From assembly GCF_963665995.1 (NCBI RefSeq), contig NZ_OY762512.1, positions 620,001-684,000 on the forward strand: DNA of 64,000 bases. Direction: 5' to 3'. The translations under genes and the position numbers were made by a program. The stretch is from Pleurocapsa sp. FMAR1. GTDB lineage: Bacteria > Cyanobacteriota > Cyanobacteriia > Cyanobacteriales > Xenococcaceae. The notes under the pieces were generated by a model. The model was not told where the DNA came from. It saw only the letters and a program-made list of their open reading frames with translations, and did not search any database. Below are positions 4,150 to 17,611 of this stretch, one piece after another (positions within the stretch are counted from its first letter, which is position 1; each line of letters starts with the position of its first letter).

Positions 4150-5556
4150 ATGTTTAAGACTAAAACCAGAGGAAGAAGAGTTTTTTCCTATCGTCAGCAG
4201 AAACGTCGTCGTTTTTCGCTCTTTTCAGCGATCGCATCTTTGGCTCTATTTTTGCTAATCTTAGAATTGCTAACTCGCATATTTGTCGATCTTTCAGGCA
4301 ATAGAGATAAGTTTGCTCAAGGCAAGACAGGCTCCGAAATAATTCAGGCTTATCAGCTTAAGTTTGTCCCGAATGAATCTCAAATAGATCGAACCAAAGA
4401 TCAGCAAGCACTGTTTGCTAAACCTGCTTTATCAGTTGGTTATCAGCTATTAAGCAATCAAGAAAGCCAGTTTTGGCAAATTAATCCCCAGGGATTTCGC
4501 GATCGCGATCCTGTACCATTAGTTAAACCCAAGGATGAGATTAGGATATTTATCTTGGGCAATTCAACTGCCTTTGGCTACGGCAGTCGTGAAAATGGAG
4601 CTACGATTAGCGAACAGCTAGAACAACGTCTAGAAGAGCGTCTGCAACAGCAAAAAACTTCGCCTCAGCTATATAAAAGCGGCTTGTTATCTGGCGATCA
4701 AGCAGAAAAACCAAAATCTCCAGCCAAACCAGCTAAAATTAAGCCTGGAAATTATCGTGTTATTAACGCTGCTGTTCCTGGTTATGTTTCGGGTAACGAA
4801 TTGGCTCAACTGGCTTTACAAATTTTAAAATATAAGCCTGATCTAATTATTGTCATGGATGGCTATGAAGACTTTATGCTTCCTAGCAATGAAGATGCTA
4901 CCCAAGTACCTCAACTCAAAAATTATCTTGAGGATCGGCAAACTGGGTTTAAGGGATATATTAACCAGTTAATTGAGCCAATAAAAAATAAAAGTTATTT
5001 GGTTAAAATAGCTCAGGAACGTTGGCTAAATAGTAAACAAGCTGACGAAAAAACTGATTTTATTCTTGATGAACAAAGCTCTAAGCTGGTTCAATATTTA
5101 CCTCAAAACCAAAAGGAACTACAAGCCAGGATAGATCGCTATGTAGAACATCAAAAACAAATGCTTAGTCTTAGTACAGCATCTCTTGTTCCTTTAATAG
5201 TGGCAATACAGCCTGAAATTACTGGACGCAACCCCGCTCAACTAACCGATACTGAGGGAACAATTACTACTGAGCTTGGCAGAACCTATATCGAGCGGAT
5301 GAGAAATGAATATCCAGCTTTAATCGAAGCAACACAGCAGCTAGCTGAAGCCTTTCCTCAAAATTTAAAAGCTGTTGATTTATATAAGTTAAGCGATCAA
5401 TATCCTTCCCCCAGCTTTATCGATCCCATTAATCTAAACGAAGCAGCTAATCAAAAAGTAGCCGAACAGCTTTACTACGCTATTGCTAGCTTTTCTAAGA
5501 TGCAGGTTACATCCAAACAAGCACCAACTCCAAAACCCGTAGATCAAAATCGATGA
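4150..5556 (+). CDS. Membrane-anchored SGNH-hydrolase-like protein with altered catalytic triad
   Basis: 468 residues. A very basic N-terminus (RRVFSYRQQKRRRFS) precedes one transmembrane helix at about 24-42, so the rest is probably periplasmic. The body has the SGNH/GDSL fold motifs: block I is ILGNSTAFGYG with Ser139, block II contains NAAVPGYVSGNE, and a third strand reads PDLIIVMDGYED. In the last block the usual 'DxxH-L-N' is DPINLNE: the catalytic His position is Asn428. A lysine/proline-rich insertion at about 183-196 separates blocks I and II. The stop codon overlaps the start of the isomerase gene (ATGA), so the two are translationally coupled. A role on acyl or acetyl groups is family knowledge; the missing His makes normal hydrolysis doubtful. 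Confidence 0.7.
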   Translation: MFKTKTRGRRVFSYRQQKRRRFSLFSAIASLALFLLILELLTRIFVDLSGNRDKFAQGKTGSEIIQAYQLKFVPNESQIDRTKDQQALFAKPALSVGYQLLSNQESQFWQINPQGFRDRDPVPLVKPKDEIRIFILGNSTAFGYGSRENGATISEQLEQRLEERLQQQKTSPQLYKSGLLSGDQAEKPKSPAKPAKIKPGNYRVINAAVPGYVSGNELAQLALQILKYKPDLIIVMDGYEDFMLPSNEDATQVPQLKNYLEDRQTGFKGYINQLIEPIKNKSYLVKIAQERWLNSKQADEKTDFILDEQSSKLVQYLPQNQKELQARIDRYVEHQKQMLSLSTASLVPLIVAIQPEITGRNPAQLTDTEGTITTELGRTYIERMRNEYPALIEATQQLAEAFPQNLKAVDLYKLSDQYPSPSFIDPINLNEAANQKVAEQLYYAIASFSKMQVTSKQAPTPKPVDQNR

Positions 5557-7256
5557 AGGAAAAAGTTTTACAGCTTGATGATGATATAAACACCGATGAC
5601 ATTATTCCCGCACATCGGACGACTAACCCAGATCCAGAACATCTCAAGCATTATGTTCTAGAACACATAATCGGTATTGATACTTTATTAGAATATGACC
5701 TAATAGAAGCAGGAAAAAACTTTGGCTGTGGTTCGAGTCGAGAGTATGCACCCGTCGCTATCAAAGCTGCGGGAATCAAGCTTGTTCGCGCTCATTCTTT
5801 TGCCGAGATTTTTTATCGCAACAGTATTAATATTGGCTTAAATTTAGAAATAATTGGTGATAGTCCAGATAATCCCCTGGTTACAGCTATTTCCGCAGCA
5901 GGGGGATTAACAGCTTTTAATCAACAAAGGTTACAAAATAAAATATCTGTTCCCAAGAACAATACTGCACCTTGTCCGATGACAATGGCAGAGAAGATGT
6001 TAGCCAAAGCTTCGGGGAATGACTATGTAAAGCCTGGAGAGATAGTGTTTGCTAAGGTAGATTTGGCAATGTCCCATGATGCGATCGCCGCACCCGTATT
6101 TCGGCTCTTTCATCACTATTTCGGTAAAAATGCCCAGATTTGGGATTCTAGCAAAGTAGTTTTAGTAGCCGATCATTTTATTCAAGTTAATGATATTAGA
6201 GTAGATCCTCAAGCTACTAAGCTTTACCAGGATATGATTGATTTTGCTCATCAGCATGGCTGCAAGCTATTTGACCTAATATCTCCTGGGGAGGCATCAG
6301 GAATATGTCATGTTTTGTTACCAGAACAAGGTTTAATTCGTCCAGGAATGATCATTGCGGGGACAGATTCTCATAGCTGCACCTATGGCGCATTTGGTAG
6401 TTTTTCCACTGGTGTAGGCACTACCGACATGGCAAATATTTTAGCTACAGGAAATATGTGGCTGCGTGTCCCTGGGACGATTGTTTTTGAGCTTTTTGGA
6501 ACACTACCTAAATATCTTAGTGCTAAAGACATCATGCTGTTTATTTTGGGCAAAATTGGCTGTCAGGGTGCAATTGGTAAGGTAATGGAGTTTCGAGGCA
6601 GCGTTATTGAACAGCTATCTATTGATGAACGAATGACTCTAAGTAATATGGCGGTTGAGTGTGGCGCAATGTGTGGCTTAATTGCCCCTGATGCTGTAAC
6701 TGAGGAATATCTAAAAGACAAAAGTAAATCTGAGTTTGACACTGTAGTCGGTGATAATGACGCAGAACATGACCACGTATATCAGTTCGATCTCAGTAAG
6801 CTTGAGCCACAAATAGCCTGTCCTCCAAAACCCGATCAAGTGTTAAATATTAGTGAATTACCTGATACACCAATTACTTTAGCTTTTGTTGGTTCATGCA
6901 CAGGGGGTAAATTAGCAGACTTAGCTCAAGTGGCAAAGGTATTAACCAACCAGCGTATTAACCCAAACGTGCAGATGTACGTTGTTCCTGCTTCGCAGTT
7001 AGTTCGTCAACAAGCAGAAGAAGTAGGCTACTTTGATATTTTTCGACAGGCTGGGGTACAAATTCTCAAGTCTGGTTGTGGTGCCTGTATTAATTCTGGA
7101 AAGGGAGTTCTAGGCAAGCAAGAAACGGGTATTTATGCTACTAATCGTAACTTTACAGGGCGTACTGGCGATCCAACTGGTAAAAATTATTTGGCATCTC
7201 CAAGAGTAGTAAGCATCTCGGCTATCAACGGCAAGATAAGCGATAAATTAGTCTAA
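5553..7256 (+). CDS. Fused LeuD-LeuC isomerase (3-isopropylmalate dehydratase / aconitase family)
   Basis: 567 residues joining the small (swivel) and large [4Fe-4S] subunits of an isopropylmalate-isomerase-like enzyme in one chain, small domain first. The LeuD part (about 1-140) has DDDINTDDIIPAHRTT, the substrate loop FGCGSSRE (57-63) and RAHSFAEIFYRN. The LeuC part (about 155-567) has AGTDSHSCTYGAFG, cluster ligands Cys449 in GSCTGGK and Cys509/Cys512 in GCGAC, and the LeuC hallmark NRNFTGRTGDP. Start ATG 5553 overlaps the upstream SGNH stop by four bases. The chemistry is dehydration and rehydration of an alkylmalate. The substrate is not known; with the synthase-like gene at 16469 it could carry out one round of 2-oxo-acid chain elongation. 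A dedicated dehydrogenase (LeuB-like) is not in the window. Confidence 0.88.
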   Translation: MKEKVLQLDDDINTDDIIPAHRTTNPDPEHLKHYVLEHIIGIDTLLEYDLIEAGKNFGCGSSREYAPVAIKAAGIKLVRAHSFAEIFYRNSINIGLNLEIIGDSPDNPLVTAISAAGGLTAFNQQRLQNKISVPKNNTAPCPMTMAEKMLAKASGNDYVKPGEIVFAKVDLAMSHDAIAAPVFRLFHHYFGKNAQIWDSSKVVLVADHFIQVNDIRVDPQATKLYQDMIDFAHQHGCKLFDLISPGEASGICHVLLPEQGLIRPGMIIAGTDSHSCTYGAFGSFSTGVGTTDMANILATGNMWLRVPGTIVFELFGTLPKYLSAKDIMLFILGKIGCQGAIGKVMEFRGSVIEQLSIDERMTLSNMAVECGAMCGLIAPDAVTEEYLKDKSKSEFDTVVGDNDAEHDHVYQFDLSKLEPQIACPPKPDQVLNISELPDTPITLAFVGSCTGGKLADLAQVAKVLTNQRINPNVQMYVVPASQLVRQQAEEVGYFDIFRQAGVQILKSGCGACINSGKGVLGKQETGIYATNRNFTGRTGDPTGKNYLASPRVVSISAINGKISDKLV

Positions 7257-7346
7257 TTTGCTTAAACCATATTCTTAATTAAATTGTTAGGATTGTTGGT
7301 TGTTACTTTTCAATTCATGCTTAATAACTTTAGGTTGAGCGATTTT

Positions 7347-7973
7347 ATGTTTAATTATCCTATTAGGTTTAAAAATAGTAGCTTTTTAATTAAACTTATT
7401 GCTTCATTAATTATTAGTTTGGGAATGAGTTTTACTGTACTAGCTCAAGACACTATTGATCAGGTAAAGCTATCTCCTCAAGAACAAACTAAGTTAAATC
7501 AAGGTCAAGTAGTACTTAAAGGCAGCAAAGGGAAATATGTCGGGGAGGTAATTGCCACGGGGAATGTGAATACTGCTTGGCAAGTATTGACTGACTACAA
7601 TAACTTTCGCAATTTTCTGCCAAATGTTTCTGCAAGTAGAATAGTTAAAAGTAATGGCGATCGCAAAATATTTGAGCAGGTAAATAAAGTTGATTTATTC
7701 TTTTATACGCAAGAGTATACAGTACAAATCGAGTCGTCAGAAGTGAAACCACAAAAGATAACTTTTAAACTGTATAAAGGAGACTTAAAACATTTATCAG
7801 GAAGTTGGCAAATTAAAAAAATTGATGCCAATAGAATTATGGTTATTCATACTGCTGATGTTGTACCTAAAACTACTACAGAGAAAGCTTTCTTTTACGG
7901 TATTTACGAAAATTCTATTGAAAAAACATTAGCAGCGATCTCTTTAGAGATTACTAAACGGTCTAAAAATTAA
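7347..7973 (+). CDS. Exported SRPBCC (START/Bet v1-like) domain protein
   Basis: About 208 residues from ATG 7347. A signal peptide is visible (positive MFNYPIRFKNSS, hydrophobic core LIKLIASLIISLGMSF, cleavage near VLAQ), so the protein is exported or lumenal. The mature part resembles cyanobacterial SRPBCC / 'cyclase-dehydrase' proteins: GEVIATGNVNTAWQVLTDYNNF and FLPNVSASRIVK give the helix-grip pattern, with GSWQIKKID and an amphipathic C-terminal helix. This fold binds lipids or polyketide-like ligands in a hydrophobic pocket. An earlier TTG at 7284 would put extra residues ahead of the signal and is less likely. It lies 90 bases after the LeuDC fusion on the same strand, and its end overlaps the convergent synthase gene by 11 bases. 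Specific function unknown. Confidence 0.65.
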   Translation: MFNYPIRFKNSSFLIKLIASLIISLGMSFTVLAQDTIDQVKLSPQEQTKLNQGQVVLKGSKGKYVGEVIATGNVNTAWQVLTDYNNFRNFLPNVSASRIVKSNGDRKIFEQVNKVDLFFYTQEYTVQIESSEVKPQKITFKLYKGDLKHLSGSWQIKKIDANRIMVIHTADVVPKTTTEKAFFYGIYENSIEKTLAAISLEITKRSKN

Positions 7974-10900
7974 AATTTTTTAATTGTTCTATTAATAGTG
8001 ATTCTGCTTCTGTTTCCAATAAATTATTAATTTGATTTAAATCATTATCTAGATCTATATTTTGTTCGCTTACATTTTTATTAAACATAGTTTTTAATAA
8101 ATAGTTAGCTAACTTATTTACATTGGAATAGTCAAAAATAACTGTTGCCGATAATTTGAGGTTGTAGCTAGACTGAAGTTTATTTCTTAGTTCAACCGAA
8201 CCTAAAGAATCTAATTCTAATTCAGCAAAACCTAGTTCTAAATCAATTTGATTGATATTTTTAATCCCTAATATATTTGCTACCTGCTGACTAATTTGTT
8301 CTATTAATAAACCTTGGCGTTGAGAAGCTTCTACATTTAATAGCTGCTGTTTAAAATCAAGATTAGCTATAGAAATAGGATGAGAATCAATAAAATTATT
8401 ATAGAATGGTATAGCAGAATTGTTTTTATTCCATACGTTCCAATCAATCGGAATTACGCCAATTTGCGTTGGAGAATGCAATAGCAACTGCTCTAATATT
8501 TCAATCCCCTCTGTTGGTTTAATACTGCCTATTCCCTTTTGTTTTAAACTTTCTATTATTTGAGTGTCAGCAGCTAGCCCAGTGTTTTGCCATGCACCCC
8601 AATTAATTGCGCTCGCAGGTAAACCTAAACGACGACGACCATGAGCTAAAGCATCGAGAAAAGCATTGGCAGCACAATAATTGGCTTGTCCTGGCGAACC
8701 AACTAAAGAACTAGCTGAAGAAAACAAAATAAAGCTTTCTAAGTCATATTTTTGCGTTAAAAGGTGTAAATTCCATGCCCCCTGAACTTTAGGCGCGAGA
8801 ACCTGGCTAAAGCTTGACCAATCTTGTTTTAAGATAGTGCGATCGCTTGTTACTCCAGCACAGTGAATGACTCCTCGCAGGGGAGGTAGTGTTGATTCGA
8901 TTTGTGATAAAGCCTGGGCTAGTTGATTTGTATCAGCAATATCTGCTTTAATAAGATTAACTTGGGCATCCCCTTGTATTTTTTGCAGCTTGCTCTGTAA
9001 TTCAGGTTTTACTGCGCTACGTCCAAGTAAAACAATATTTTTTATTCCTTTAGTTGTTAACCACTGAGCTACCTCTAAACCAATTGCACCCATTCCTCCT
9101 GTTATTAAATATGTGCCGTCGAAATGAGGGAGTAACGGGGTGATGGGGTGACGGGGTGACGGGGTGATTATAATTTTGCCTTGATGTTTTCCTTGCTGCA
9201 TATAGCGAAAAGCATCAATAATTTTATCGCTAGAGAATATAGTGTGGGGTAAGGGTTTGAGTTTTTCTGTAGCAAATTGCGACAACACATCACCAAGCAT
9301 CTGTTGAATTAATTCAGGCTGATCTTGGGTAATTCGCCACAGATCGATAATAAAGTAATTAATATTTGGTTTAACTTCAGCCACATCTTGCTTAGACCAA
9401 ATACCCTGCTTACCTATTTCGATAAAATGCCCGCGATCGTTTAACACGGACACACTTTTAGAAATAAATTCACCTGACAAGGAATTAAGTATTACATCTA
9501 CACCTTTACCATCGGTGGCAGATACAATTTCCTCAGCAAAATCCAGACTGCGGGAGTTCATAATATTTTTTACTCCCATTGATCTAAGCAATTCCCATTT
9601 GGGAGTTGAGGCAGTAGCAAATATTTCTGCGCCTTGCTGTTGGGCTATCTGTATCGCAGCCAAACCAACACCACCTGCTGCTGAGTGAATTAAGACTTTT
9701 TCCCCTGGCTGTATTCGTGCCAAATAAATAAGGGTGTAGTAGGCAGTAAGGAAAGTTACGGGAATAGTTGCAGCCTCTTCATAGCTGAGAGATTCTGGTT
9801 TAGGGATAGCCAGCAGAGAATTAACGGTAAGATACCGACTAAAGCTATTATCTGAAATAGCAATTACTGCATCTCCAAGTTTAAAATCGTTTACCTCTTT
9901 ACCTAATGCGGTAACTATTCCTGCACATTCTAAGCCCAAGAATTTCGTCTCGTCGGGATATAAATCTAAAGCAACCATCACATCACGGAAGTTCAAACCA
10001 GTTGCTTTAACTTCTATTTCTATTTCATGATCTTGAGGCTGTTGTCGGCTGATTGATTTCCACTGTAAGCTATCCAAATTACCAGGATCATTAATCTCTA
10101 ACTGCAAATTAAATTCAGTAGAGTTTTCTCTTCCAGTCTCCTTGTCTCCCAGTCTCCCAGTCTCCTTGTCTCCTCGTCTCCTCGTCTCTTCGTCTCCTTG
10201 TCTCTTCGTCTCCTTGTCAAATCTAACCAACCTAGCTACATAACGCTGATTATTTCTATAGCCAACCTGTTCATTTAATACCGCGCAAATTTCCTGGAAG
10301 ATAGTCTCTGCTTCGTTGTTTGTAGAATTGCGATCTAGATCTATCCCTACACATAATAACTCTGGATGTTCCAAGGCGATCGCTTTCTGCATCCCCCAAA
10401 GACAAGACTGTTTTATTGCCGATGTCAGTTGATAGTTATCTACAGGTTGGGCATTACGGGTAACAAACCACAAGGGAGGATTATCATTGTGTTGTATTAA
10501 AGCCTGTACCAAATATAAATAACTTTCACACTCTCGCCAATCTTCGATCTCATCTAAACTGCAAAGATAAATAACCCCTGCTAGATCTTGATGTTGCTGT
10601 ATTAAACTTTGAAATGCTTCAGGGTTATCTTTAATAATATGGCGGGTAACAAGATGACATTGTTGCTGCTGTAATTCTAAAAGCGTAAGTAACTTGTTAC
10701 CAATACCTGTACTATCGGCAAAAATCAACCACGTACCAGTTTCAATAGCCAGAGAAGATTTAGATGATAAAGGCTGCTGTATCCATTGCTGCTGATATAG
10801 CCAATTTTGCCAACGAGGTTGGGAATTTACTGCTTGAGATTTCAAGCCTGTGAGTTTGGCAACCAAATCGCCGTAATCGTTATATAGCTGGATTTTGGCT

Positions 10901-13900
10901 GACAAGCCTGTGTTATATTTACTGTCTTGTTCTAATTCTAGATAACTCCAGACTTTATTACCTGGCAGACTATACAAATCTAATTTATCCAAGCCGACAG
11001 GAATATAGGTTGCGGTAGACAACTCGCTTGGTAAAGCTGCAAATAATATTTGTAGACAAGAATCTAATAGTGCAGGATGGAAATAATACTCATTGCTGTT
11101 TAAATGATTTGGTAATTCAATTAATCCTAAAGCCTCATTTTCATTTGCCCATAATTGTTTTATTCCCTGGAAGCTTTTACCGTAATTAATTCCTCTTTGC
11201 TGACACTGTTGATAGTACTGAGTAACGTCTAACTCTAAATTTTTGAACCAAGATTTAATAACTTCTAGCTGTAACTTATCTGCTGTAGCTTCTAGAGGCA
11301 AAACTTGACCAGAACTATTTAATTGCCATTGTTCATTATCATTATCAAAACTGTAAACTTCACAAGCTGCGGTATCTTGTTCAGGAGACAAGATTAACTG
11401 AATTTCAGGTACATAACTTTCTTTTATATAGAGAGGGGAATCAATAGCTACATCTTTAATAGTTAGTCGCTTAGTTTTAAACTGAAATACTCCAGATGCT
11501 ATGACCATTTCTAAATAAGCAGTACCAGGAAGGACAGGCTTGTTAGCCAAACAGTGATCTTGCAGCCAAGTAATACTATTAGACTGGAGGTGAGATTGAA
11601 ATATTGTTTGTTTTAAAGGAGAGGATAAAGGCTTTCCTAATAAAGGGTGAGTAGTCTGTAGCGTATTATTTCTATATTGCCTAATAATGTCTGGTTTAGG
11701 GATATCAAACCAGTATCTTTGTCTTTGAAAAGGGTAAGTGGGCAAAGATATTTTTTGACCGTTATAGTTTTTGCTGACTTCTGACCAATTAATATCTACT
11801 CCTGCAATATATAACTGTGATAATGCCTCTAATATTTGTAGCCAGTCATCATGTTTAGGATTAAGACTATACAAAAATAGTTTATTATCTGAAATACTTT
11901 GTGCCATTCCTGTCAATGTTGGTTTTGTGCCGACTTCTAGAAATATACTCACTTGCCGATCTAAATATTTGATACTTTTGGCAAATTGAACTGGCTTTAA
12001 AATATGATCTGTCCAATACTGTGGAGTAGCTACAGGTTCGTTAGCCAATTCTCCTGTAATATTGGAAATCATTAGTATCTGTGGTAAAGAATAATTGATA
12101 GTTTTAGCAACTTTTTCAAAATCCTCTATAATAGGCTGCATTAAAGGAGAATGAAAAGCATAATTTACATTTAATAATTGCGTTTTTATTTCTGATGATT
12201 CTAGCTCTTTGATAATGTTATCTATATCAACTTTTAGTCCAGATAATACAATATGCGAGCCATTATAAGCAGCAATACTTATATTTTTATTTAAGACAAA
12301 ATCTATCTTTTCTTGATCGCAAAAAACAGCCAGCATTGCGCCATTTGTTGGTAAGCTTTGTATTAGCTTCGATCTGGCTGAAACAAGTTTTAAAGCATCT
12401 TCTAAACTAAATACCCCCGCAAGACAAGCTGCTACATATTCACCTATACTATGCCCCATTACTACATCAGGTTTGATTCCCCAAGATAGCCACATTTGCG
12501 CCAGGGAGTATTCAATCGTGAATAATAAAGGTTGGGTGTATTGGGTTTCGTTGATTGTATATAAACTTGTAATTCCAATCTTGGCGCTCTTCTTTGCGTC
12601 TTTGCGTCTCTGCGCGAGATAATTTTCATTCAAGTCAATAAATACTTCCAGCAATGCCTTATCATAATCAGGCTGTAGAATTTCCAAACAGCGATCGCAA
12701 TTCTCCTTAAACACAGGTTGGGTATTGTACAATTGTTGTGCCATGCCGACATATTGCGAACCTTGTCCTGTAAACAAAAAGGCTATCTTGTTGTTATTTT
12801 GAATCCTATTGACTATATATATTTGATTTAATTTAGCGGCTAATTCTTGTTTATCCCTCGCTACTACACCCAGTCGATAATCAAAGTGATATCTACCAAT
12901 ATTACTGGTAAAACATATATCTCGTAGGGGCGAACAGCCGTTCGCCCTTAGATAATCCTGATAGCTTTTTACTAACTCCTGTAAGGCAGGTTCGGTTTTC
13001 GCTGATAGGGTTAATAAATATCCTGGAAGCTGTTGCTTATTGCTTTTTTCAACAGTAAACTCTTCTAAAATTAAGTGAGCATTAGTACCACCAATACCCA
13101 AAGAATTTACTCCAGCACGACGGGGATAGTTATCGCTTTTCCAGTCTTGTAACTGAGTATTAATATAAAAAGGACTGCGCTCAAAATTTATCTGGGGATT
13201 AGGATTATTAAAGTGTAGACTAGCAGGTATTTTTTGGTGATATAAACAAAGGGTAGTTTTAATTAAACCAACTATCCCCGATGCCATTTGTAGATGTCCC
13301 ACATTGGTTTTAACTGAACCAACCGCACAATAACCTATTTTTCTGGTATCATCATGATATGCTTGAGTCAATGCCTTGATTTCAATGGGATCGCCTAGCT
13401 TTGTTCCCGTACCGTGTGCTTCAATATAGCTAACAGATTGCGGTGGTATGTCTGCGTATGCTAATGCTTCGGCTACTGCTCTAGTTTGCCCATCTACATT
13501 CGGAGCAAAATAACCGACTTTGGTGCCACCATCATTATTAACTGCCGATCCTTTGACAATTCCATAAATGCGATCGCCATCTTCTATTGCTTTATCTAAT
13601 AGCTTCAGCACCACCATCCCCGCACCACTACCAAAGATCGTTCCACCCGCTGACTCATCAAAAGCGCGACAGTGACCATCAGGAGATAAAATCATTCCTT
13701 CTTGGTATAAATAGCCCATTTTCTGCGGAGAGTGAACAGAAACTCCTCCCGCCAGGGCTAGATCGCATTCGGAGTTGATTAAGCTCTGACAAGCTAAGTG
13801 AACTGTAACCAAGGATGTAGAACAAGCGGTTTGCACATTTACACTAGAACCTGTAAGATTTAGTTTATAGGATATTCTAGTAGTAAGATAATCCTTGTCG

Positions 13901-16320
13901 TTTGCAGTACTGGCTTGAAAGCCTCCCATCGAGCTTAGATTTATTACCTTTAGGTCATCCTGCTCATCAATGGTATGACGGTTGGGATATATGTTATTTA
14001 ACAGATAGGTATTTGTTGCTGCACCACCGTAGAGCGCGATCTCTCCTTTGTAAGTAAAAGGATCGTACCCCGCATCTTCTAAACTTGACCAAGCGCATTC
14101 GAGAAATAAACGCTGCTGCGGATCTAATAGTTGTGCCTCTTTGGGACTATAGCCCCAAAAATCCGCATCAAAACCTGCTATGTCGTCGAGAATTGGACTA
14201 GCTTTTACGTAGTTGGGATTATTGAGTAACTCTTGATCGACTCCAGAGTCGAGAATTTCTGCATCTTCAAAAAAGCTAATGGACTCTACGCCATTGCAAA
14301 GATTATGCCAAAACTCCTCTATATTATTTGCCCCAGGAAAACGACAGGACATCCCAATAATTGCCACGTCTTTATTGACTGTAGCTTGACGACGTAATTC
14401 TCCCCGACGTTTACCCTGCTGTATTGCAACAGACTCTCGATCGCAGTTGAGATAATCAGCTAAAGCAGAAATAGTAGGATATTGAAACAACGTTACCGCA
14501 GATAGATGATTATGTTCAGGCGTTAATTTGCTCAATACCTGCATTAGTAATAGAGAATTACCGCCTAACTCAAAAAAGTTATCGTTTACGCTTACGGTAG
14601 CCAAATTTAAAACTTCTTTCCATACTTCAACCAGTTGTTGCTCGATCGCATTACTTGGCAACTCCTGCTGACTTAAATCTCTTTGGTTAAATGACTCGGC
14701 AACTTCTTCTACTACCTCATTAAATTCTCCTGCTGCAAATCTTTGACCAAGCTGGGATCTTTGAATTTTACCGATCGCCGTTTTGGGAATAGCATCTTTA
14801 GTAACGGGGATAATATAGGCTGGTGCGATTCCTATCTGCTCAAAGACTGCTTTACGTATTTGATTGATTAATTCTCTTAGCTTGTCTTGCTTCTGGTTGG
14901 TATTAAAAAAGATTGCTATTTGTTCTTGCTCGTTACTGTCTTTTACGCCACAAGCAGCCGTATAAGAAATAGTAACATTGGCGATCGCTTCGACTACAGT
15001 TTCGATATCATGGTTGTAATAGTTAACCCCGTTAATAATCATCACGTCTTTTTGACGACCAGTAATCGTCAGTCGTCCTGCGCTCAAAAAGCCTAAGTCT
15101 CCCGTATTGAACCAGCCATCAGCAGTAAATATCTCTTCGTTTAATTCTGGCTGCTGATAATACCCCGCCGTAACCGTTTCGCCCTTTACCTGTAACAAGC
15201 CTATCTTTCCTTCGGGGACAAGCTCATTTTTCTCATCCACAATTCTTAGAGATATTCCAGGGATAGGTGCGCCTACTTGCACAAACTGCCGATTCATATT
15301 ATGATAAAAGTCATTAGAATGGGCTATCCCTGATGTCGTTTCTGACATTCCATAGCCAGGACTAACTACAGAAGATTTTAAGCCATAGGGTGCGAGTAAT
15401 TCTAAAAAACGCTGAGTAGTTTGACCCACAACCGCTTCTGCACCATTGCCCATCCAGCGCAAACAGGACAAATCCCAGTTATGTTCTGCTGTAGATGCCA
15501 GCTTCTCATTAACTAAGTTATAGGCAAAATTTGGACTCCAGGTAGCGGTAACGCGATATCGATCGATCAAATCTAACCATTGCAACGGATTTTGGAGAAT
15601 CAATTCACTTTTGACCTGAATTTGTTGACATCCAAGGTAAACCTCAGTCAAATGAAACATTACTAAACTAGCAACGTGTTCTATGGGCATCCAATTCAAA
15701 GTAATATCCTGTTGAGATAGATTATTTACTTTCGCCATGCCGTAAACACTAGCCAAAAGATTACGCGCCGACAACATTACTCCTTTTGGCTTTCCCGTAC
15801 TACCAGAGGTAAATAGCAACAAAGCTAAGTCGTCTAGCTGACTACAATGCCAATTACCGTCAGGTTCGTTAGCCAATAAGCTCTTGAGTGCGATCGCTTT
15901 TAAATCTTTGATGTCGCTGTCGGTAATAATTAAAGGAGACTGGCATAGTTCCCACGTTTGATGTAATTTGCTGCTATTAAAATTCAAATCCACACTTAAG
16001 GGAATTGGCACAAATCCCCCCAAAAAACAGCCCCACAAACCAGCAAAAAAACACCGAGTATCTCGCAGATACAAAATCACCCGATCCTTGGGCTGTAAAC
16101 CTTTTTGACGCAATCCGCTTAAAATAGCTTCAGCATCTCGGAGTAAATCGCTGTAAGATAAAAAAATCTTTGTCTTAGGGTCACTTTTAATCGTGATTCC
16201 TGTTTCATAAGCTGCCGCGCGCACAAGAATTTCTGATAACGTCATGGTTAAAACAGAACTTGGTAAAGCATCCCCGTGACTAATAGACAGATTAGCTGAC
16301 TCTTGTTCAGACGAATTCAT
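7963..16320 (-). CDS. Type I polyketide synthase: acyl-AMP ligase-ACP-KS-AT-DH-ER-KR-ACP
   Basis: 2785 residues from ATG 16320 (GTG 16341 is an alternative). Domains in order: an acyl-AMP/CoA ligase (about 20-540; SGSTGKPKG near 175, GYGMSETT near 335, NTGDLG near 405); ACP1 with Ser589 in ELGGNSL; KS with Cys833, His969 and His1009; AT with GHSIGEY Ser1291 and a YAFH signature suggesting malonyl-CoA; DH with His1589 and Asp1753; ER with HSAAGGVG near 2215; KR with GGMGAIG and Tyr2548/Asn2552; ACP2 with Ser2705. It should activate a free carboxylic acid, add one two-carbon unit and reduce it fully. There is no thioesterase or methyltransferase; the acidic C-terminal helix (ETEAESLLIEQL) looks like a docking segment for a missing partner. 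In DH the motif HxxxGxxxxP has Asn1593 instead of Gly. Four DNA repeat elements are embedded in the linkers. Product unknown. Confidence 0.92.
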   Translation of the reverse strand: MNSSEQESANLSISHGDALPSSVLTMTLSEILVRAAAYETGITIKSDPKTKIFLSYSDLLRDAEAILSGLRQKGLQPKDRVILYLRDTRCFFAGLWGCFLGGFVPIPLSVDLNFNSSKLHQTWELCQSPLIITDSDIKDLKAIALKSLLANEPDGNWHCSQLDDLALLLFTSGSTGKPKGVMLSARNLLASVYGMAKVNNLSQQDITLNWMPIEHVASLVMFHLTEVYLGCQQIQVKSELILQNPLQWLDLIDRYRVTATWSPNFAYNLVNEKLASTAEHNWDLSCLRWMGNGAEAVVGQTTQRFLELLAPYGLKSSVVSPGYGMSETTSGIAHSNDFYHNMNRQFVQVGAPIPGISLRIVDEKNELVPEGKIGLLQVKGETVTAGYYQQPELNEEIFTADGWFNTGDLGFLSAGRLTITGRQKDVMIINGVNYYNHDIETVVEAIANVTISYTAACGVKDSNEQEQIAIFFNTNQKQDKLRELINQIRKAVFEQIGIAPAYIIPVTKDAIPKTAIGKIQRSQLGQRFAAGEFNEVVEEVAESFNQRDLSQQELPSNAIEQQLVEVWKEVLNLATVSVNDNFFELGGNSLLLMQVLSKLTPEHNHLSAVTLFQYPTISALADYLNCDRESVAIQQGKRRGELRRQATVNKDVAIIGMSCRFPGANNIEEFWHNLCNGVESISFFEDAEILDSGVDQELLNNPNYVKASPILDDIAGFDADFWGYSPKEAQLLDPQQRLFLECAWSSLEDAGYDPFTYKGEIALYGGAATNTYLLNNIYPNRHTIDEQDDLKVINLSSMGGFQASTANDKDYLTTRISYKLNLTGSSVNVQTACSTSLVTVHLACQSLINSECDLALAGGVSVHSPQKMGYLYQEGMILSPDGHCRAFDESAGGTIFGSGAGMVVLKLLDKAIEDGDRIYGIVKGSAVNNDGGTKVGYFAPNVDGQTRAVAEALAYADIPPQSVSYIEAHGTGTKLGDPIEIKALTQAYHDDTRKIGYCAVGSVKTNVGHLQMASGIVGLIKTTLCLYHQKIPASLHFNNPNPQINFERSPFYINTQLQDWKSDNYPRRAGVNSLGIGGTNAHLILEEFTVEKSNKQQLPGYLLTLSAKTEPALQELVKSYQDYLRANGCSPLRDICFTSNIGRYHFDYRLGVVARDKQELAAKLNQIYIVNRIQNNNKIAFLFTGQGSQYVGMAQQLYNTQPVFKENCDRCLEILQPDYDKALLEVFIDLNENYLAQRRKDAKKSAKIGITSLYTINETQYTQPLLFTIEYSLAQMWLSWGIKPDVVMGHSIGEYVAACLAGVFSLEDALKLVSARSKLIQSLPTNGAMLAVFCDQEKIDFVLNKNISIAAYNGSHIVLSGLKVDIDNIIKELESSEIKTQLLNVNYAFHSPLMQPIIEDFEKVAKTINYSLPQILMISNITGELANEPVATPQYWTDHILKPVQFAKSIKYLDRQVSIFLEVGTKPTLTGMAQSISDNKLFLYSLNPKHDDWLQILEALSQLYIAGVDINWSEVSKNYNGQKISLPTYPFQRQRYWFDIPKPDIIRQYRNNTLQTTHPLLGKPLSSPLKQTIFQSHLQSNSITWLQDHCLANKPVLPGTAYLEMVIASGVFQFKTKRLTIKDVAIDSPLYIKESYVPEIQLILSPEQDTAACEVYSFDNDNEQWQLNSSGQVLPLEATADKLQLEVIKSWFKNLELDVTQYYQQCQQRGINYGKSFQGIKQLWANENEALGLIELPNHLNSNEYYFHPALLDSCLQILFAALPSELSTATYIPVGLDKLDLYSLPGNKVWSYLELEQDSKYNTGLSAKIQLYNDYGDLVAKLTGLKSQAVNSQPRWQNWLYQQQWIQQPLSSKSSLAIETGTWLIFADSTGIGNKLLTLLELQQQQCHLVTRHIIKDNPEAFQSLIQQHQDLAGVIYLCSLDEIEDWRECESYLYLVQALIQHNDNPPLWFVTRNAQPVDNYQLTSAIKQSCLWGMQKAIALEHPELLCVGIDLDRNSTNNEAETIFQEICAVLNEQVGYRNNQRYVARLVRFDKETKRQGDEETRRRGDKETGRLGDKETGRENSTEFNLQLEINDPGNLDSLQWKSISRQQPQDHEIEIEVKATGLNFRDVMVALDLYPDETKFLGLECAGIVTALGKEVNDFKLGDAVIAISDNSFSRYLTVNSLLAIPKPESLSYEEAATIPVTFLTAYYTLIYLARIQPGEKVLIHSAAGGVGLAAIQIAQQQGAEIFATASTPKWELLRSMGVKNIMNSRSLDFAEEIVSATDGKGVDVILNSLSGEFISKSVSVLNDRGHFIEIGKQGIWSKQDVAEVKPNINYFIIDLWRITQDQPELIQQMLGDVLSQFATEKLKPLPHTIFSSDKIIDAFRYMQQGKHQGKIIITPSPRHPITPLLPHFDGTYLITGGMGAIGLEVAQWLTTKGIKNIVLLGRSAVKPELQSKLQKIQGDAQVNLIKADIADTNQLAQALSQIESTLPPLRGVIHCAGVTSDRTILKQDWSSFSQVLAPKVQGAWNLHLLTQKYDLESFILFSSASSLVGSPGQANYCAANAFLDALAHGRRRLGLPASAINWGAWQNTGLAADTQIIESLKQKGIGSIKPTEGIEILEQLLLHSPTQIGVIPIDWNVWNKNNSAIPFYNNFIDSHPISIANLDFKQQLLNVEASQRQGLLIEQISQQVANILGIKNINQIDLELGFAELELDSLGSVELRNKLQSSYNLKLSATVIFDYSNVNKLANYLLKTMFNKNVSEQNIDLDNDLNQINNLLETEAESLLIEQLKNFNF
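9129..9168. repeat. 8-bp tandem repeat inside the synthase (ER-KR linker)
   Basis: Five 8-base units, four of them ggggtgat or ggggtgac and one imperfect (ggagtaac). They encode a proline/serine/threonine-rich piece of about 13 residues between the ER and KR domains (about residues 2385-2398). The reading frame is preserved although the unit is not a multiple of three. Repeats of this style are usually intergenic in cyanobacteria. Confidence 0.85.
10136..10218. repeat. 8-bp tandem repeat, ten units, inside the synthase before the ER domain
   Basis: Ten consecutive units of gtctcctt/gtctccca/gtctcctc/gtctcttc followed by gtc. Three units equal 24 bases, so the protein carries an 8-residue charged repeat (KETKRQGD, EETRRRGD, KETGRLGD, KETGREN) at about residues 2035-2062. 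The segment is highly charged and almost certainly a disordered linker. It sits exactly at a domain boundary, between the post-DH region and the ER. Confidence 0.93.
12581..12619. repeat. Dispersed-type repeat (ctttgcgtc direct repeats) inside the AT domain region
   Basis: Contains ctttgcgtctttgcgtctctgcgcgag, with two direct copies of ctttgcgtc and a variant. I recognise this type as a common intergenic element in cyanobacterial genomes, from memory. Here it encodes an AQRRKDAKKSAK segment between the N-terminal GQGSQ motif and the GHSIGEY motif of the acyltransferase, where it should form a basic surface loop. Confidence 0.6.
12925..12950. repeat. REP-like palindrome inside the synthase (KS-AT linker)
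   Basis: taggggcgaac and gttcgccctta form an 8-bp perfect stem (gggcgaac/gttcgccc) with a four-base loop, agcc. Related GGGCGAA/TTCGCCC sequences occur at 21438-21452 and 39291-39317 outside genes. Here it is read as NGCSPLR, in frame, in the KS-AT linker. Confidence 0.75.
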
Positions 16321-16468
16321 AAACACACCAAACTCACTCACTACCGATTTATCAAATTTAGAGTTACTTTATAGCAAATTGTTGTGATTGAAGGTAAGTT
16401 TCCCATCAGAGTGTATTTAATTTAATAAATTCGTATATTTTGTATTACTACTGTGATAATCTTTGCTG

Positions 16469-17611
16469 ATGAAAACGGTTACACTGACTATTTTTGATGA
16501 AACTCTAAGAGATGGCGAACAACAGGTTGGCATCTTTTTTGATGAAAAAATTAAGCGCACTCTAGCTAACTTAATTATCAAAACAGGAGTACATCATTTG
16601 GCTTTAATGCCAGCCATTCATCATACAGAAGCCAAGTTAGTCAAAAGTTTAATTGACCAAGGATCTAACAAAATTATCGTCGCCTCTACCATGATGGGAG
16701 AAAGCTATATAGACGAGTCAAAAGAGTGTGGTGTAGAAACAATTATTCTGTTTAATGCAGTCAGCGATCGCCTATTATGTTTAAGAGATCCTCAGTTACG
16801 CTACCAAACTAGTCAGGATCTAGATCCCGCAACAATTCATCAAATCCGCCAACGAATGCTAGACAAAGTTTTAGCACATCTAAAATATGCTGCTGCTAAA
16901 GGTTTAAAAATATGTTTTGCAGCCGAAGATGCCAGTCGTGCCGATTTTGACTTTTTGGTAGAGTGTATTACAAAATTTCAGCCTTATATTAAGCAATTCC
17001 TACTCTGCGATACCGTCGGCATTCTTACCCCTGAAAATACTAAGCTTTGGATCAGAAATTTAATCGAGTTTACTGGCAACCAAACCCCTTTGTCTGTCCA
17101 TTTTCACAACGATCGCGGTTTAGCTTTAGAAAACACTATTCAAGCAGTTTTAGCTGGGGCGACGGGCATTTCGGGTACGTTTGGTGGTATTGGCGAAAGA
17201 GCGGGAAATGTGGCACTAGAACAAGTTTTAAATGGTTTAAAACTGCGCTATGGTTGGCAGGTAGCAGGAATCAACTACGATGCTTTTACCAAAGTGACTG
17301 ACTATCTATCCAGTCAGGGATTTACTGCCAATACTCCTTATTCCCCCGCCAGCTTACGTTATGAAACAGGAATTCATGTAGATTCCTTATTTTGTGACTC
17401 CACTAGCTACTATCTTTTCTCTCATGGTCAACCTGAAATCTGGTTTGGCAAATTTAGTGGTGCGAGTAACTTTAAATATTTTTTTGAGCATCATCTAAAC
17501 CAGCCTCTAACCAAAGAAAAATATCAAGAGTTTAGGGAAAAAATAAAAAATCTTGCTATTCAACAAAAACGCTCTTTTTCTGGGGAAGAGGTATTGAAAT
17601 ATCTAATTTAA
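16469..17611 (+). CDS. 2-isopropylmalate/homocitrate-synthase-like enzyme (HMGL family), short form
   Basis: 380 residues from ATG 16469 (a TTG six bases earlier is weaker). A DRE-TIM metallolyase that would condense an acyl-CoA, usually acetyl-CoA, with a 2-oxo acid. Visible motifs are DETLRDGEQ (about 9-17), the metal-binding HFHNDRG (about 211-217) and GTFGGIGERAGN (about 236-247). It stops after the catalytic and subdomain regions and lacks the ~130-residue LeuA regulatory domain, as in NifV or benzylmalate synthase HphA. It is divergent from the polyketide synthase across about 150 bases. With the LeuDC fusion at 5553 it supplies two of the three steps of keto-acid elongation. Substrate is not determinable here; homocitrate, alkylmalate or benzylmalate are all possible. 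Confidence 0.85.
   Translation: MKTVTLTIFDETLRDGEQQVGIFFDEKIKRTLANLIIKTGVHHLALMPAIHHTEAKLVKSLIDQGSNKIIVASTMMGESYIDESKECGVETIILFNAVSDRLLCLRDPQLRYQTSQDLDPATIHQIRQRMLDKVLAHLKYAAAKGLKICFAAEDASRADFDFLVECITKFQPYIKQFLLCDTVGILTPENTKLWIRNLIEFTGNQTPLSVHFHNDRGLALENTIQAVLAGATGISGTFGGIGERAGNVALEQVLNGLKLRYGWQVAGINYDAFTKVTDYLSSQGFTANTPYSPASLRYETGIHVDSLFCDSTSYYLFSHGQPEIWFGKFSGASNFKYFFEHHLNQPLTKEKYQEFREKIKNLAIQQKRSFSGEEVLKYLI

What the first reader, a model, noticed from the sequence alone, without database searches (positions are those of the whole stretch)
4150..17611. Candidate biosynthetic locus: acyl-AMP-ligase polyketide synthase with keto-acid chain-elongation enzymes
Seen: a one-module fully reducing polyketide synthase with its own acyl-AMP ligase; a divergent isopropylmalate-synthase-like enzyme lacking the regulatory domain; a fused LeuD-LeuC isomerase coupled to a membrane SGNH protein; and a secreted SRPBCC protein. 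Family knowledge: a short IPMS-like enzyme plus a fused LeuCD-type isomerase is the HphA/HphCD logic for homo-amino acids such as homophenylalanine. Inference: the pair makes an unusual chain-extended carboxylic or oxo acid that the ligase loads as starter, or the locus supplies a precursor to a partner assembly line elsewhere. I know of no described cluster with this combination.
Basis: partly seen in the sequence, partly recalled or inferred. Interest (0 to 1): 0.78.

Follow-up and report, generated by a model that had tools for sequence, protein, structure and literature searches.

The report
Phenyl-primed sphingolipid-like pathway in cyanobacteria
This cyanobacterium carries one fragment of a scattered gene set that probably builds a sphingosine-like lipid capped with a benzene ring, and the gene set recurs as a unit in other cyanobacterial families, which gives a testable genetic lead for sphingolipid-like lipids in this phylum.

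Summary
The window encodes HphCD (fused LeuD-LeuC), an HphA-like synthase, a secreted SRPBCC protein and a one-module reducing PKS with its own adenylation domain. HphA and HphCD are extra copies beside LeuA, CimA-like, LeuC and LeuB genes.

The ligase is not a canonical FAAL. It lacks the FAAL insertion, scores twice as high with McyG and the keto-acid domain StsA, and keeps McyG residues that hold a benzene ring.

In 73 chosen cyanobacterial genomes the same 15 carry this PKS type, HphA, HphCD, a close alpha-oxoamine synthase (AOS; visibly fused to a second PKS in 13) and an SDR; HphB, searched in 36 genomes, is in all 15. HphA is divergently adjacent to the PKS in 14 of 15. One genome holds everything in about 33 kb. 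In the window's genome the parts lie at five places.

Best reading: Hph enzymes supply an aryl oxo acid, the PKS uses it as starter, and PKS-AOS releases a phenyl-ended, sphingoid-like amino ketone. Gene association is strong; the chemistry is inferred. Main rival: Hph makes the amino acid that the AOS uses. The SGNH protein is not conserved with the set.

The parts
5553..7256 (+). HphCD: fused LeuD-LeuC type isomerase (benzylmalate isomerase family)
   Evidence: PF00694+PF00330; 23 of 388 class genomes, its own included, hold a close copy, the others at 63-70%; one clade of cyanobacterial sequences 99/99
7284..7973 (+). secreted SRPBCC (START-like) protein, tail to tail with the PKS
   Evidence: PF03364 54.6 bits; homologues lie between KS-only and SDR genes downstream of the PKS in G024, G193, G141
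7963..16341 (-). A-ACP-KS-AT-DH-ER-KR-ACP polyketide synthase, one reducing module
   Evidence: relatives at 50-67% over the A domain in 14 other genomes of 73
14719..16245 (-). adenylation domain of the PKS (about aa 33-541), McyG/keto-acid-selecting type
   Evidence: McyG 4r0m 442 bits and StsA 6ulx 442 bits, every chain after the three best at 207 or less; V223, W268, G331, S337
13210..14373 (-). KS domain (aa 657-1044)
   Evidence: PF00109/PF02801; TACSTS, EAHGTGT
10819..12780 (-). AT and DH domains (aa 1188-1841)
   Evidence: PF00698, PF21089, PF14765
8587..10032 (-). ER and KR domains (aa 2104-2585)
   Evidence: PF08240/PF13602, PF08659
16463..17611 (+). HphA-like synthase (likely start ATG 16469), divergent from the PKS
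   Evidence: PF00682 147 bits; 22 of 73 genomes, all HphCD-positive; apart from own LeuA/CimA-like 99/99
16342..16462 (.). 121-bp AT-rich divergent intergenic region between PKS and HphA genes
   Evidence: arrangement kept in 14 of 15 genomes; no promoter-like site of the scan falls in it
4150..5556 (+). membrane-anchored SGNH protein, 4-nt overlap with HphCD; probably not part of the conserved system
   Evidence: PF00657 34.4 bits; no hit over 80 bits in 57 related loci

Best explanation
The window holds one piece of a scattered pathway for a phenyl-ended, sphingoid-like amino lipid. SHOWN by sequence: the gene set co-occurs, the main catalytic motifs are present, and the adenylation pocket is McyG-like. 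INFERRED chemistry: (1) HphA (window), HphCD (window) and HphB (3,270,133-3,271,278) lengthen phenylpyruvate, or a similar hydrophobic 2-oxo acid, by one carbon to 2-oxo-4-phenylbutyrate. (2) The A domain of the window PKS activates this acid, or a derivative after loss of C1 as proposed for McyG, and loads its ACP. (3) The module adds and reduces a C2 unit; the KS-only protein (4,690,387-4,692,390) and the second PKS (2,181,414-2,189,237) extend further. (4) The AOS domain at the end of the second PKS releases the chain by decarboxylative condensation with an amino acid, serine by analogy with SPT. (5) The SDR (3,662,239-3,663,021) reduces the ketone to a 2-amino-3-ol. (6) The SRPBCC protein may handle the lipid in the periplasm; glycosylation is possible in relatives. 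In most relatives without Hph the same kind of AOS is accompanied by ordinary FAAL enzymes, so Hph plus the aryl-loading PKS looks like an alternative acyl supply.
For: Co-occurrence in 73 genomes (23 HphCD-positive, 50 negative picked by me): the P0004-type PKS and AOS of 62% identity or more are in the same 15 genomes; all 15 also have HphA, the SDR and HphB (36 genomes searched). Synteny: HphA divergent to the PKS in 14 of 15; HphB directly downstream of PKS-AOS in 10 of 15, with 4-nt overlap of the mechanical ORFs in 5; all genes in about 33 kb of G024. A domain: McyG and StsA chains 441-442 bits, all others 207 or less; FAAL insertion absent; Val, Trp, Gly and Ser of the McyG benzene pocket kept (residues from PMC11253843, passages). 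Sister A domains sit in A-KR-ACP modules of three other Hph genomes. HphA position 157 is Cys in 12 of 15 PKS-type rows and Asp, Glu, Asn or Lys in the 6 NRPS-type rows. AOS is closest to SPT (246 bits) with SHNS, DEAHS and TLSKS motifs. FAAL-like genes lie near the AOS in 5 of 6 HphCD-negative loci viewed. Precedent: PKS + AOS makes sphinganines in P. fluorescens (PMC12134224, abstract and passages).
Against: No chemistry was measured and no product is known. The genes of the window's genome lie at five distant places. HphB is coupled to PKS-AOS, not to the A-domain PKS, which would also suit a role in making the AOS amino acid. McyG was crystallised with Phe-AMP (PMC11253843), so the pocket speaks for an aromatic ring but not for one acid; the Met typical of StsA is also in 4 of 5 FAAL rows. 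The Asn near the cofactor in SPT (number recalled) is Tyr throughout this AOS family, so serine is not assured. HphA position 157 is Tyr, Trp and Ser in three PKS-type rows, which might fit smaller substrates. The SDR scores 106.6 bits against the 400-bit cut-off of the ketosphinganine reductase model, below generic SDR models, and is missing at my threshold in G022 and G097, which have AOS relatives of 51-55%. In G227 and G145 the A domain is split over two ORFs. The DH motif of the window PKS is atypical and its AT motif reads YAFH where most orthologues read HAFH, so dehydration and extender are not certain. No enzyme for removing C1 was found. The 15 genomes belong to 8 genera in 3 families and are not independent.
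Confidence: 0.5

Rival explanations
1. Same gene set, other end: HphA/B/CD plus a general aminotransferase make a homo-aromatic amino acid (homophenylalanine type), and the AOS condenses this amino acid, not serine, with the polyketide chain, giving a vitroprocine-like amino ketone. The A domain would load another aryl or alkyl acid.
For: HphB overlaps PKS-AOS by 4 nt in G145, G141, G125, G223, G118. In L072 HphCD overlaps an aminotransferase by 4 nt (one case). Vitroprocines derive from Tyr/Phe by a PLP-dependent release (PMC4523872, passages). Position 153 of the AOS is Arg in 15 of 15 full-set rows and in none of 7 other AOS rows (five HphCD-negative genomes, G097 and the window genome's ACP-AOS).
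Against: AOS domains of full-set and HphCD-negative loci are 51-60% identical with few class-specific columns, so a new amino acid is not evident. The A domain keeps an aromatic pocket, and the A domain, not the AOS family as a whole, tracks Hph.
Confidence: 0.22
2. The window cluster is self-standing: the PKS and the Hph enzymes make an aryl-alkanoic acid or polyketide of their own, and co-occurrence with PKS-AOS is due to shared lineage or co-transfer.
For: In the window's genome the PKS-AOS is 1.5 Mb away and the PKS carries its own loading domain.
Against: Exact match of 15 and 15 of 73 genomes; one contiguous cluster in G024; members of the same genera that lack one lack the other (G198; G071); no thioesterase in the PKS.
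Confidence: 0.1
3. The Hph genes supply homophenylalanine or homotyrosine to an NRPS, as in anabaenopeptin producers, and the PKS neighbour is incidental.
For: Hph genes lie beside NRPS-like genes in G271 and G339 and near them in G129, G097 and G289.
Against: A condensation-domain search of the window's genome found four one-module genes (three half-C-A-PCP-TE and one formyltransferase-A-PCP-TE), none near Hph; NRPS without a C domain were not sought. PKS-context HphA rows fall outside the NRPS-context clade (98/99).
Confidence: 0.08
4. Housekeeping leucine or homocitrate enzymes that happen to lie beside a PKS.
For: Best curated models are LeuC/HacA-type and NifV/LeuA-type.
Against: Scores of the synthase lie far under the cut-offs (NifV 197.7 of 462.9); separate LeuA, CimA-like, LeuC and LeuB exist; close copies in only 23 of 388 class genomes.
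Confidence: 0.02

Closest known systems
HphA/HphB/HphCD homologation pathway of Nostoc punctiforme and anabaenopeptin producers (PMC12961565, abstract and sections 5, 8, 16; PMC6562525, passages)
   Same: Same three-enzyme set, fused isomerase, HphA-type residues Ala159 and Ser242, clade with NRPS-context copies
   Different: Ser/Cys/Leu at positions 73/157/186; partner is a PKS plus PKS-AOS, not a multimodular NRPS; HphB unlinked in this genome. The N. punctiforme sequence itself was not compared
McyG loading domain of microcystin synthetase (PMC11253843 and PMC11209926, passages)
   Same: Best-scoring solved relative of the A domain, benzene-pocket residues kept; A and carrier followed by a PKS module
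   Different: Reducing module with ER; supply by Hph enzymes; no NRPS found downstream
SgaAB: iterative PKS plus alpha-oxoamine synthase that makes sphinganines in Pseudomonas fluorescens (PMC12134224, abstract and passages)
   Same: Type I PKS chain released by an SPT-like AOS
   Different: AOS fused to the PKS here; aryl-type loading PKS and Hph enzymes added; the main text has no occurrence of 'cyanobacter'
Floridanemamide/portoamide clusters with adjacent isopropylmalate genes (PMC13252402, passages)
   Same: Leu-type enzymes proposed to supply a 2-oxo acid starter, taken by an A domain, to a cyanobacterial PKS
   Different: alpha-Ketoisocaproate, reduced by a loading KR, in a PKS-NRPS; no AOS in the passages seen
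Vitroprocines of Vibrio (PMC4523872, passages)
   Same: PLP-dependent release joining a polyketide and an aromatic amino acid
   Different: Aromatic unit comes from the amino acid, not from a starter; no Hph enzymes in the passages seen

Membership tests
HphA (2-benzylmalate synthase) | LeuA-type catalytic domain without regulatory domain, metal and catalytic motifs present | tested here: met
   382 aa, PF00682 only; DETLRDGEQ, HFHND, GERAGN, ETGIH
HphA (2-benzylmalate synthase) | Clade with HphA of hphABCD clusters, apart from LeuA | tested here: met
   99/99 split from own LeuA and CimA-like; no NifV row and no named HphA was included
HphA (2-benzylmalate synthase) | Substrate-site residues A73, D157, A159, M186, S242 | tested here: inconclusive
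   A159 and S242 kept; S, C, L at 73, 157, 186; these three also vary among NRPS-context copies and in PMC12961565
HphA (2-benzylmalate synthase) | Condensation of phenylpyruvate and acetyl-CoA | not testable with these tools
   needs enzyme assay
HphCD | One-chain LeuD-LeuC fusion, cysteine motifs, partner HphA and HphB in the genome | tested here: met
HphCD | Substrate loop as in NRPS-context HphCD | tested here: inconclusive
   PKS-context rows read KRGTN or QRGTN, the window HRTTN; of 5 NRPS-context rows one reads KRGTN, three NRATT/NRATN, one KWCTT; planctomycete fusions differ more
FAAL | FAAL-specific insertion (defined in PMC11837247, passages) | tested here: not met
   gap of about 20-25 residues after the A5 motif against own Ols FAAL and FAALs of G222, G168, G022; the FAAL-AOS of G164 is also shorter there
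McyG / keto-acid-selecting A domain | No Asp at the amino-group position; hydrophobic residue there | tested here: met
   V223; EHV in all 15 P0004-type rows
McyG / keto-acid-selecting A domain | Residues around the benzene ring (W272, A333, G335, S341 of McyG) | tested here: met
   W268, G329 (Ala to Gly), G331, S337; Trp in the 6 P0004-type and 4 A-KR-type rows aligned, Gly in 5 of 5 FAAL rows
McyG / keto-acid-selecting A domain | Activates an aryl or oxo acid | not testable with these tools
   needs ATP-PPi exchange
PKS-AOS sphingolipid pathway (SgaAB-like) | Type I PKS with SPT-like AOS, catalytic motifs present | tested here: met
   SgaAB sequences were not compared
PKS-AOS sphingolipid pathway (SgaAB-like) | Ketosphinganine reductase | tested here: inconclusive
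   SDR co-occurs (20 of 73 genomes) but its G141 copy scores 106.6 of 400 on the curated model
PKS-AOS sphingolipid pathway (SgaAB-like) | Uses L-serine | not testable with these tools
   an SPT Asn position is Tyr here
Housekeeping LeuA/LeuC | Sole copies, within housekeeping clade and above curated cut-off | tested here: not met

The most novel reading that the evidence does not exclude
Cyanobacteria of at least three families make omega-phenyl sphingoid bases by a two-part polyketide synthase primed with a homologated phenylpyruvate and released by a serine palmitoyltransferase-like domain; the same AOS/SDR core, fed by FAALs in other cyanobacteria, would be the missing genetic basis of cyanobacterial sphingolipids.
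Probability: 0.37. Interest if true: 0.82.

Novelty: new variant of a known kind. Interest (0 to 1): 0.7.

Why it matters
According to the abstract and introduction passages of PMC8895605 only two ceramides had been reported from cyanobacteria, and no sphingolipid enzyme or genetic basis. The gene families named here (PKS-AOS, ACP-AOS and FAAL-AOS with a linked SDR) make that question directly testable by knockout and lipidomics. If the starter assignment holds, Hph homologation serves a lipid and not only peptides, and aryl-capped sphingoid bases would be an unusual lipid class whose role in membranes or defence could be studied.

Tried and rejected
FAAL reading of the ligase: used as a working label up, dropped. 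First idea that Hph makes the AOS amino acid: demoted to rival for the same reason and because AOS domains differ little between full-set and HphCD-negative loci. SGNH as a partner: rejected. Glycosylation: GT4 lies beside PKS-AOS in 4 of 13 viewed contexts, with a 36-41% relative in one HphCD-negative AOS locus, G164. A GT-C query matched 60 of 73 genomes at 1e-25, but its best matches (266 bits and more over the full length) are all in Hph genomes (13 of the 15 and G217), and no HphCD-negative genome passes 241 bits; the window's genome has only a 167-bit match, so glycosylation is left as a possibility for relatives. NRPS partner: only one-module genes found. AOS class-specific columns gave no clear substrate. 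The promoter/terminator scan was at background. In one search my fourth HphA site was the wrong column; one search corrects it (Leu, not Val, at 186). No listing described this combination; the library holds open-licence PMC papers only, and the Hph discovery paper was not held.
Full report
WHAT IS THERE. The window is part of a 5.43-Mb single-contig cyanobacterial genome (G000:C1:620001-684000). The five ORFs of the finding are present. Pfam and NCBIfam give: SGNH/GDSL membrane protein; LeuD fused to LeuC; secreted SRPBCC protein; PKS A-ACP-KS-AT-DH-ER-KR-ACP; LeuA-type catalytic domain without regulatory domain. The isomerase keeps cysteine motifs and the synthase its metal and catalytic motifs. 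The PKS keeps KS, AT, ER, KR and ACP motifs and the DH His and Asp; the DH motif has Asn for the usual Gly, and the AT motif reads YAFH where most orthologues read HAFH (meaning of the motifs recalled).

NOT HOUSEKEEPING. The genome has one other unfused LeuC-type gene and an AcnB-like gene, a LeuA and a CimA-like gene, and two LeuB-type genes plus Icd. One of the two LeuB-type genes, at 3,270,133-3,271,278, is an HphB: relatives at 58-68% identity occur in 20 of the 35 other genomes searched, all of them HphCD-positive, while the LeuB band stops at 46%; none of the 13 HphCD-negative genomes in that search has one, and of the HphCD-positive ones G136 and G217 lack it. The synthase scores 197.7 bits on the NifV model against a cut-off of 462.9.

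FAMILY AND DISTRIBUTION. In 388 genomes of the class, 23 (its own included) hold a close fused LeuD-LeuC: 21 long matches and 2 fragmentary ones, 63-70% identity to the window copy. More distant fusions (31-36%) occur in Planctomycetota, marine archaea and other bacteria. Trees put all cyanobacterial HphCD rows in one clade (99/99; one very long, fragmentary thermophile row falls inside it and is unreliable) and HphA rows apart from the genome's own LeuA and CimA-like proteins (99/99), with an NRPS-context clade of six HphA rows (98/99). Gene contexts are of two kinds. In G271 and G339 hphA, hphB and hphCD are contiguous beside genes with A-domain matches that look like NRPS; G129, G097 and G289 have such genes near. 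In the others with visible context the Hph genes lie by PKS genes or alone.

CO-OCCURRENCE. I searched 73 genomes: all 23 HphCD-positive and 50 of the 365 others, picked by hand. HphA (E at most 1e-50): 22 of 73, all HphCD-positive; the exception is the fragmentary G247. A domain of P0004 (E at most 1e-70): 21 of 73, of which 15 are P0004-type PKS (the window and 14 others at 50-67%, some cut by contig ends), 3 are A-KR-ACP modules in NRPS-context genomes (51-52%), one is an A-KR-ACP-TE (G217, 44%) and two are 39-41% (G300, G168). AOS domain of the second PKS: 62% identity or more in 15 of 73, the same 15; a PKS fusion is visible in 13, the frames of G166 and G267 being too short to tell. In the 50 negatives the best are 58-60% (G080, G168, G198, G222) and 51% (G022); the HphCD-positive G097 has 55%. 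SDR (E at most 1e-50): 20 of 73, namely the same 15 plus G080, G164, G168, G198 and G222, which also have an AOS relative (G164 at 36%, fused to a FAAL); G022 and G097 have an AOS relative but no SDR at this threshold. G247 is not among the 15 but has an AOS fragment, HphB and HphCD in a row on one small contig. The 15 genomes fall in 8 genera of 3 families, so they are not 15 independent events. Within genera the set comes and goes together: G198 (genus of the window) and G071 (genus of G141 and G223) lack HphA, HphCD, HphB, the P0004-type PKS and an AOS of 62% or more.

SYNTENY. HphA is divergently adjacent to the P0004-type PKS in 14 of the 15 (not G099; in G166 only a short piece of the A domain lies on that contig; in G227 and G145 the A domain is split over two ORFs). 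HphB is directly downstream of PKS-AOS in 10 of 15, with a 4-nt overlap of the mechanical ORFs in G145, G141, G125, G223 and G118 (G267 from coordinates). In G024 HphCD, HphB, two GT-C genes, a GT4, PKS-AOS, HphA, the P0004-type PKS, a KS-only protein, SRPBCC and SDR lie within about 33 kb. The order PKS, KS-only, SRPBCC, SDR recurs in G024, G193 and G141. The window keeps PKS and SRPBCC tail to tail; its KS-only homologue is at 4.69 Mb (47-57% to five cluster copies, against 46% and 38% to its own two PKSs), PKS-AOS at 2.18 Mb and SDR at 3.66 Mb.

THE LIGASE. Against solved structures the A domain scores 442 bits with McyG and 441-442 with the chains that PMC11253843 lists as StsA; the next chains score 207 or less, among them chains named FAAL at 152 and 129. 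It lacks the 20-25 residue stretch after the A5 motif that the genome's own olefin-synthase FAAL and three FAALs of HphCD-negative AOS loci have; the FAAL-AOS of G164 is also shorter there. According to PMC11253843 (passages) McyG, solved with Phe-AMP, has V227 in place of the amino-binding Asp and holds the benzene ring with W272, A333, G335 and S341; the keto-acid domain StsA has Met415 where amino-acid domains have Pro. P0004 has V223, W268, G329, G331, S337 and M332. The Trp is in all 6 P0004-type and 4 A-KR-type rows aligned and is Gly in 5 of 5 FAAL rows; the Met is also in 4 of 5 FAAL rows and so does not discriminate. PMC11209926 (passages) states that McyG activates phenylpropanoids and that C-1 is truncated.

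THE AOS. The second PKS of this genome is KS-AT-DH-ER-KR-ACP-AOS, 2607 aa. Its AOS is closest to serine palmitoyltransferase (246 bits) ahead of an AONS/KBL chain (224), with SHNS, DEAHS and TLSKS motifs. The Asn near the PLP in SPT (N52, number recalled) aligns with Tyr in this family. In HphCD-negative genomes the AOS stands otherwise: FAAL, ACP, AOS and SDR in G222; FAAL and ACP-AOS in G168; FAAL-AOS fusions in G164 and G022; a FAAL-like gene beside PKS-AOS-SDR in G080; ACP-AOS without a FAAL in the 13 kb seen in G198. The window's genome has such an ACP-AOS as well. PMC12134224 (abstract, passages) shows that a PKS plus AOS makes sphinganines in Pseudomonas. PMC8895605 (abstract, passages) says that no cyanobacterial sphingolipid enzyme had been characterised.

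READING. The simplest account is that Hph enzymes supply an aryl 2-oxo acid, the P0004 type loads and extends it, and PKS-AOS releases it as a sphingoid-like amino ketone that the SDR reduces. That these genes work together is well supported (I put it near 0.9). That the aryl unit is the starter, and not the amino acid, rests on the A-domain pocket and on the near-constancy of the AOS (about 0.6 against 0.25). Phenyl as opposed to another hydrophobic group rests on Hph homology and the Trp (about 0.65). HphA position 157, charged or polar in the six NRPS-context copies (E, N, D, D, E, K), is Cys in 12 of 15 PKS-context copies and Tyr, Trp, Ser in the others; 186 is Leu in all 15. This is in line with an apolar side chain but does not fix it.

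NOVELTY. Every part has a known relative; the combination was not found in the literature searches named above, within an open-access library. I class it as a new variant of a known kind (PKS/AOS sphingoid pathway).

Noticed in passing
window 10136-10218: An 8-bp tandem repeat (10.4 copies, unit GTCTCCTC) lies in the coding sequence of the PKS between DH and ER; a change of one unit would shift the frame, so the gene could be phase-variable.
   Followed up: partly
L214:8511-10139 (AOS match G000:C1:2663528-2664724): A second AOS in the genome, ACP-AOS of 542 aa, 60% to the PKS-fused one; the HphCD-negative genome G198 of the same genus has a like-sized one.
   Followed up: partly
L255, L256, L257, L260, L261: FAAL with ACP-AOS, FAAL-AOS fusions or FAAL beside PKS-AOS in cyanobacteria without Hph, with the SDR adjacent or near in G222, G164 and G080: candidate genes for ordinary sphingoid bases.
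   Followed up: partly
L113:5609-14065: An olefin-synthase-like PKS (ligase-ACP-KS-AT-KR-ACP-sulfotransferase-thioesterase, by eye) is in the genome, so it may make 1-alkenes.
   Followed up: no
L112:9415-17238: The PKS-AOS of this genome seems to carry a stretch of about 50 arginine- and serine-rich residues before its ER domain that looks inserted (read by eye).
   Followed up: no
L266, L267, L268, L269: Four one-module NRPS genes: three half-condensation-A-PCP-TE of about 1150 aa and one formyltransferase-A-PCP-TE.
   Followed up: partly
L072:1-2983: In a Xenococcaceae MAG HphCD overlaps an aminotransferase gene by 4 nt and is followed by a GDSL protein.
   Followed up: partly
L111:12453-13904: Beside the KS-only gene at 4.69 Mb lies a DNA phosphorothioation restriction enzyme gene (TIGR04095, 633.7 bits, cut-off 600).
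   Followed up: no
L077-L107: Distant LeuD-LeuC fusions (31-36%) in Planctomycetota, marine archaea and candidate phyla; the rows aligned have a different substrate loop.
   Followed up: partly
L251:7794-13049: G217, an HphCD/HphA genome without an AOS of 62% or more, has a lone A-KR-ACP-thioesterase protein.
   Followed up: no
L216-L227: A GT-C (PMT_2) subfamily query has its best matches (266 bits and more) only in Hph genomes, 13 of the 15 and G217, and is weak in the window's genome.
   Followed up: partly
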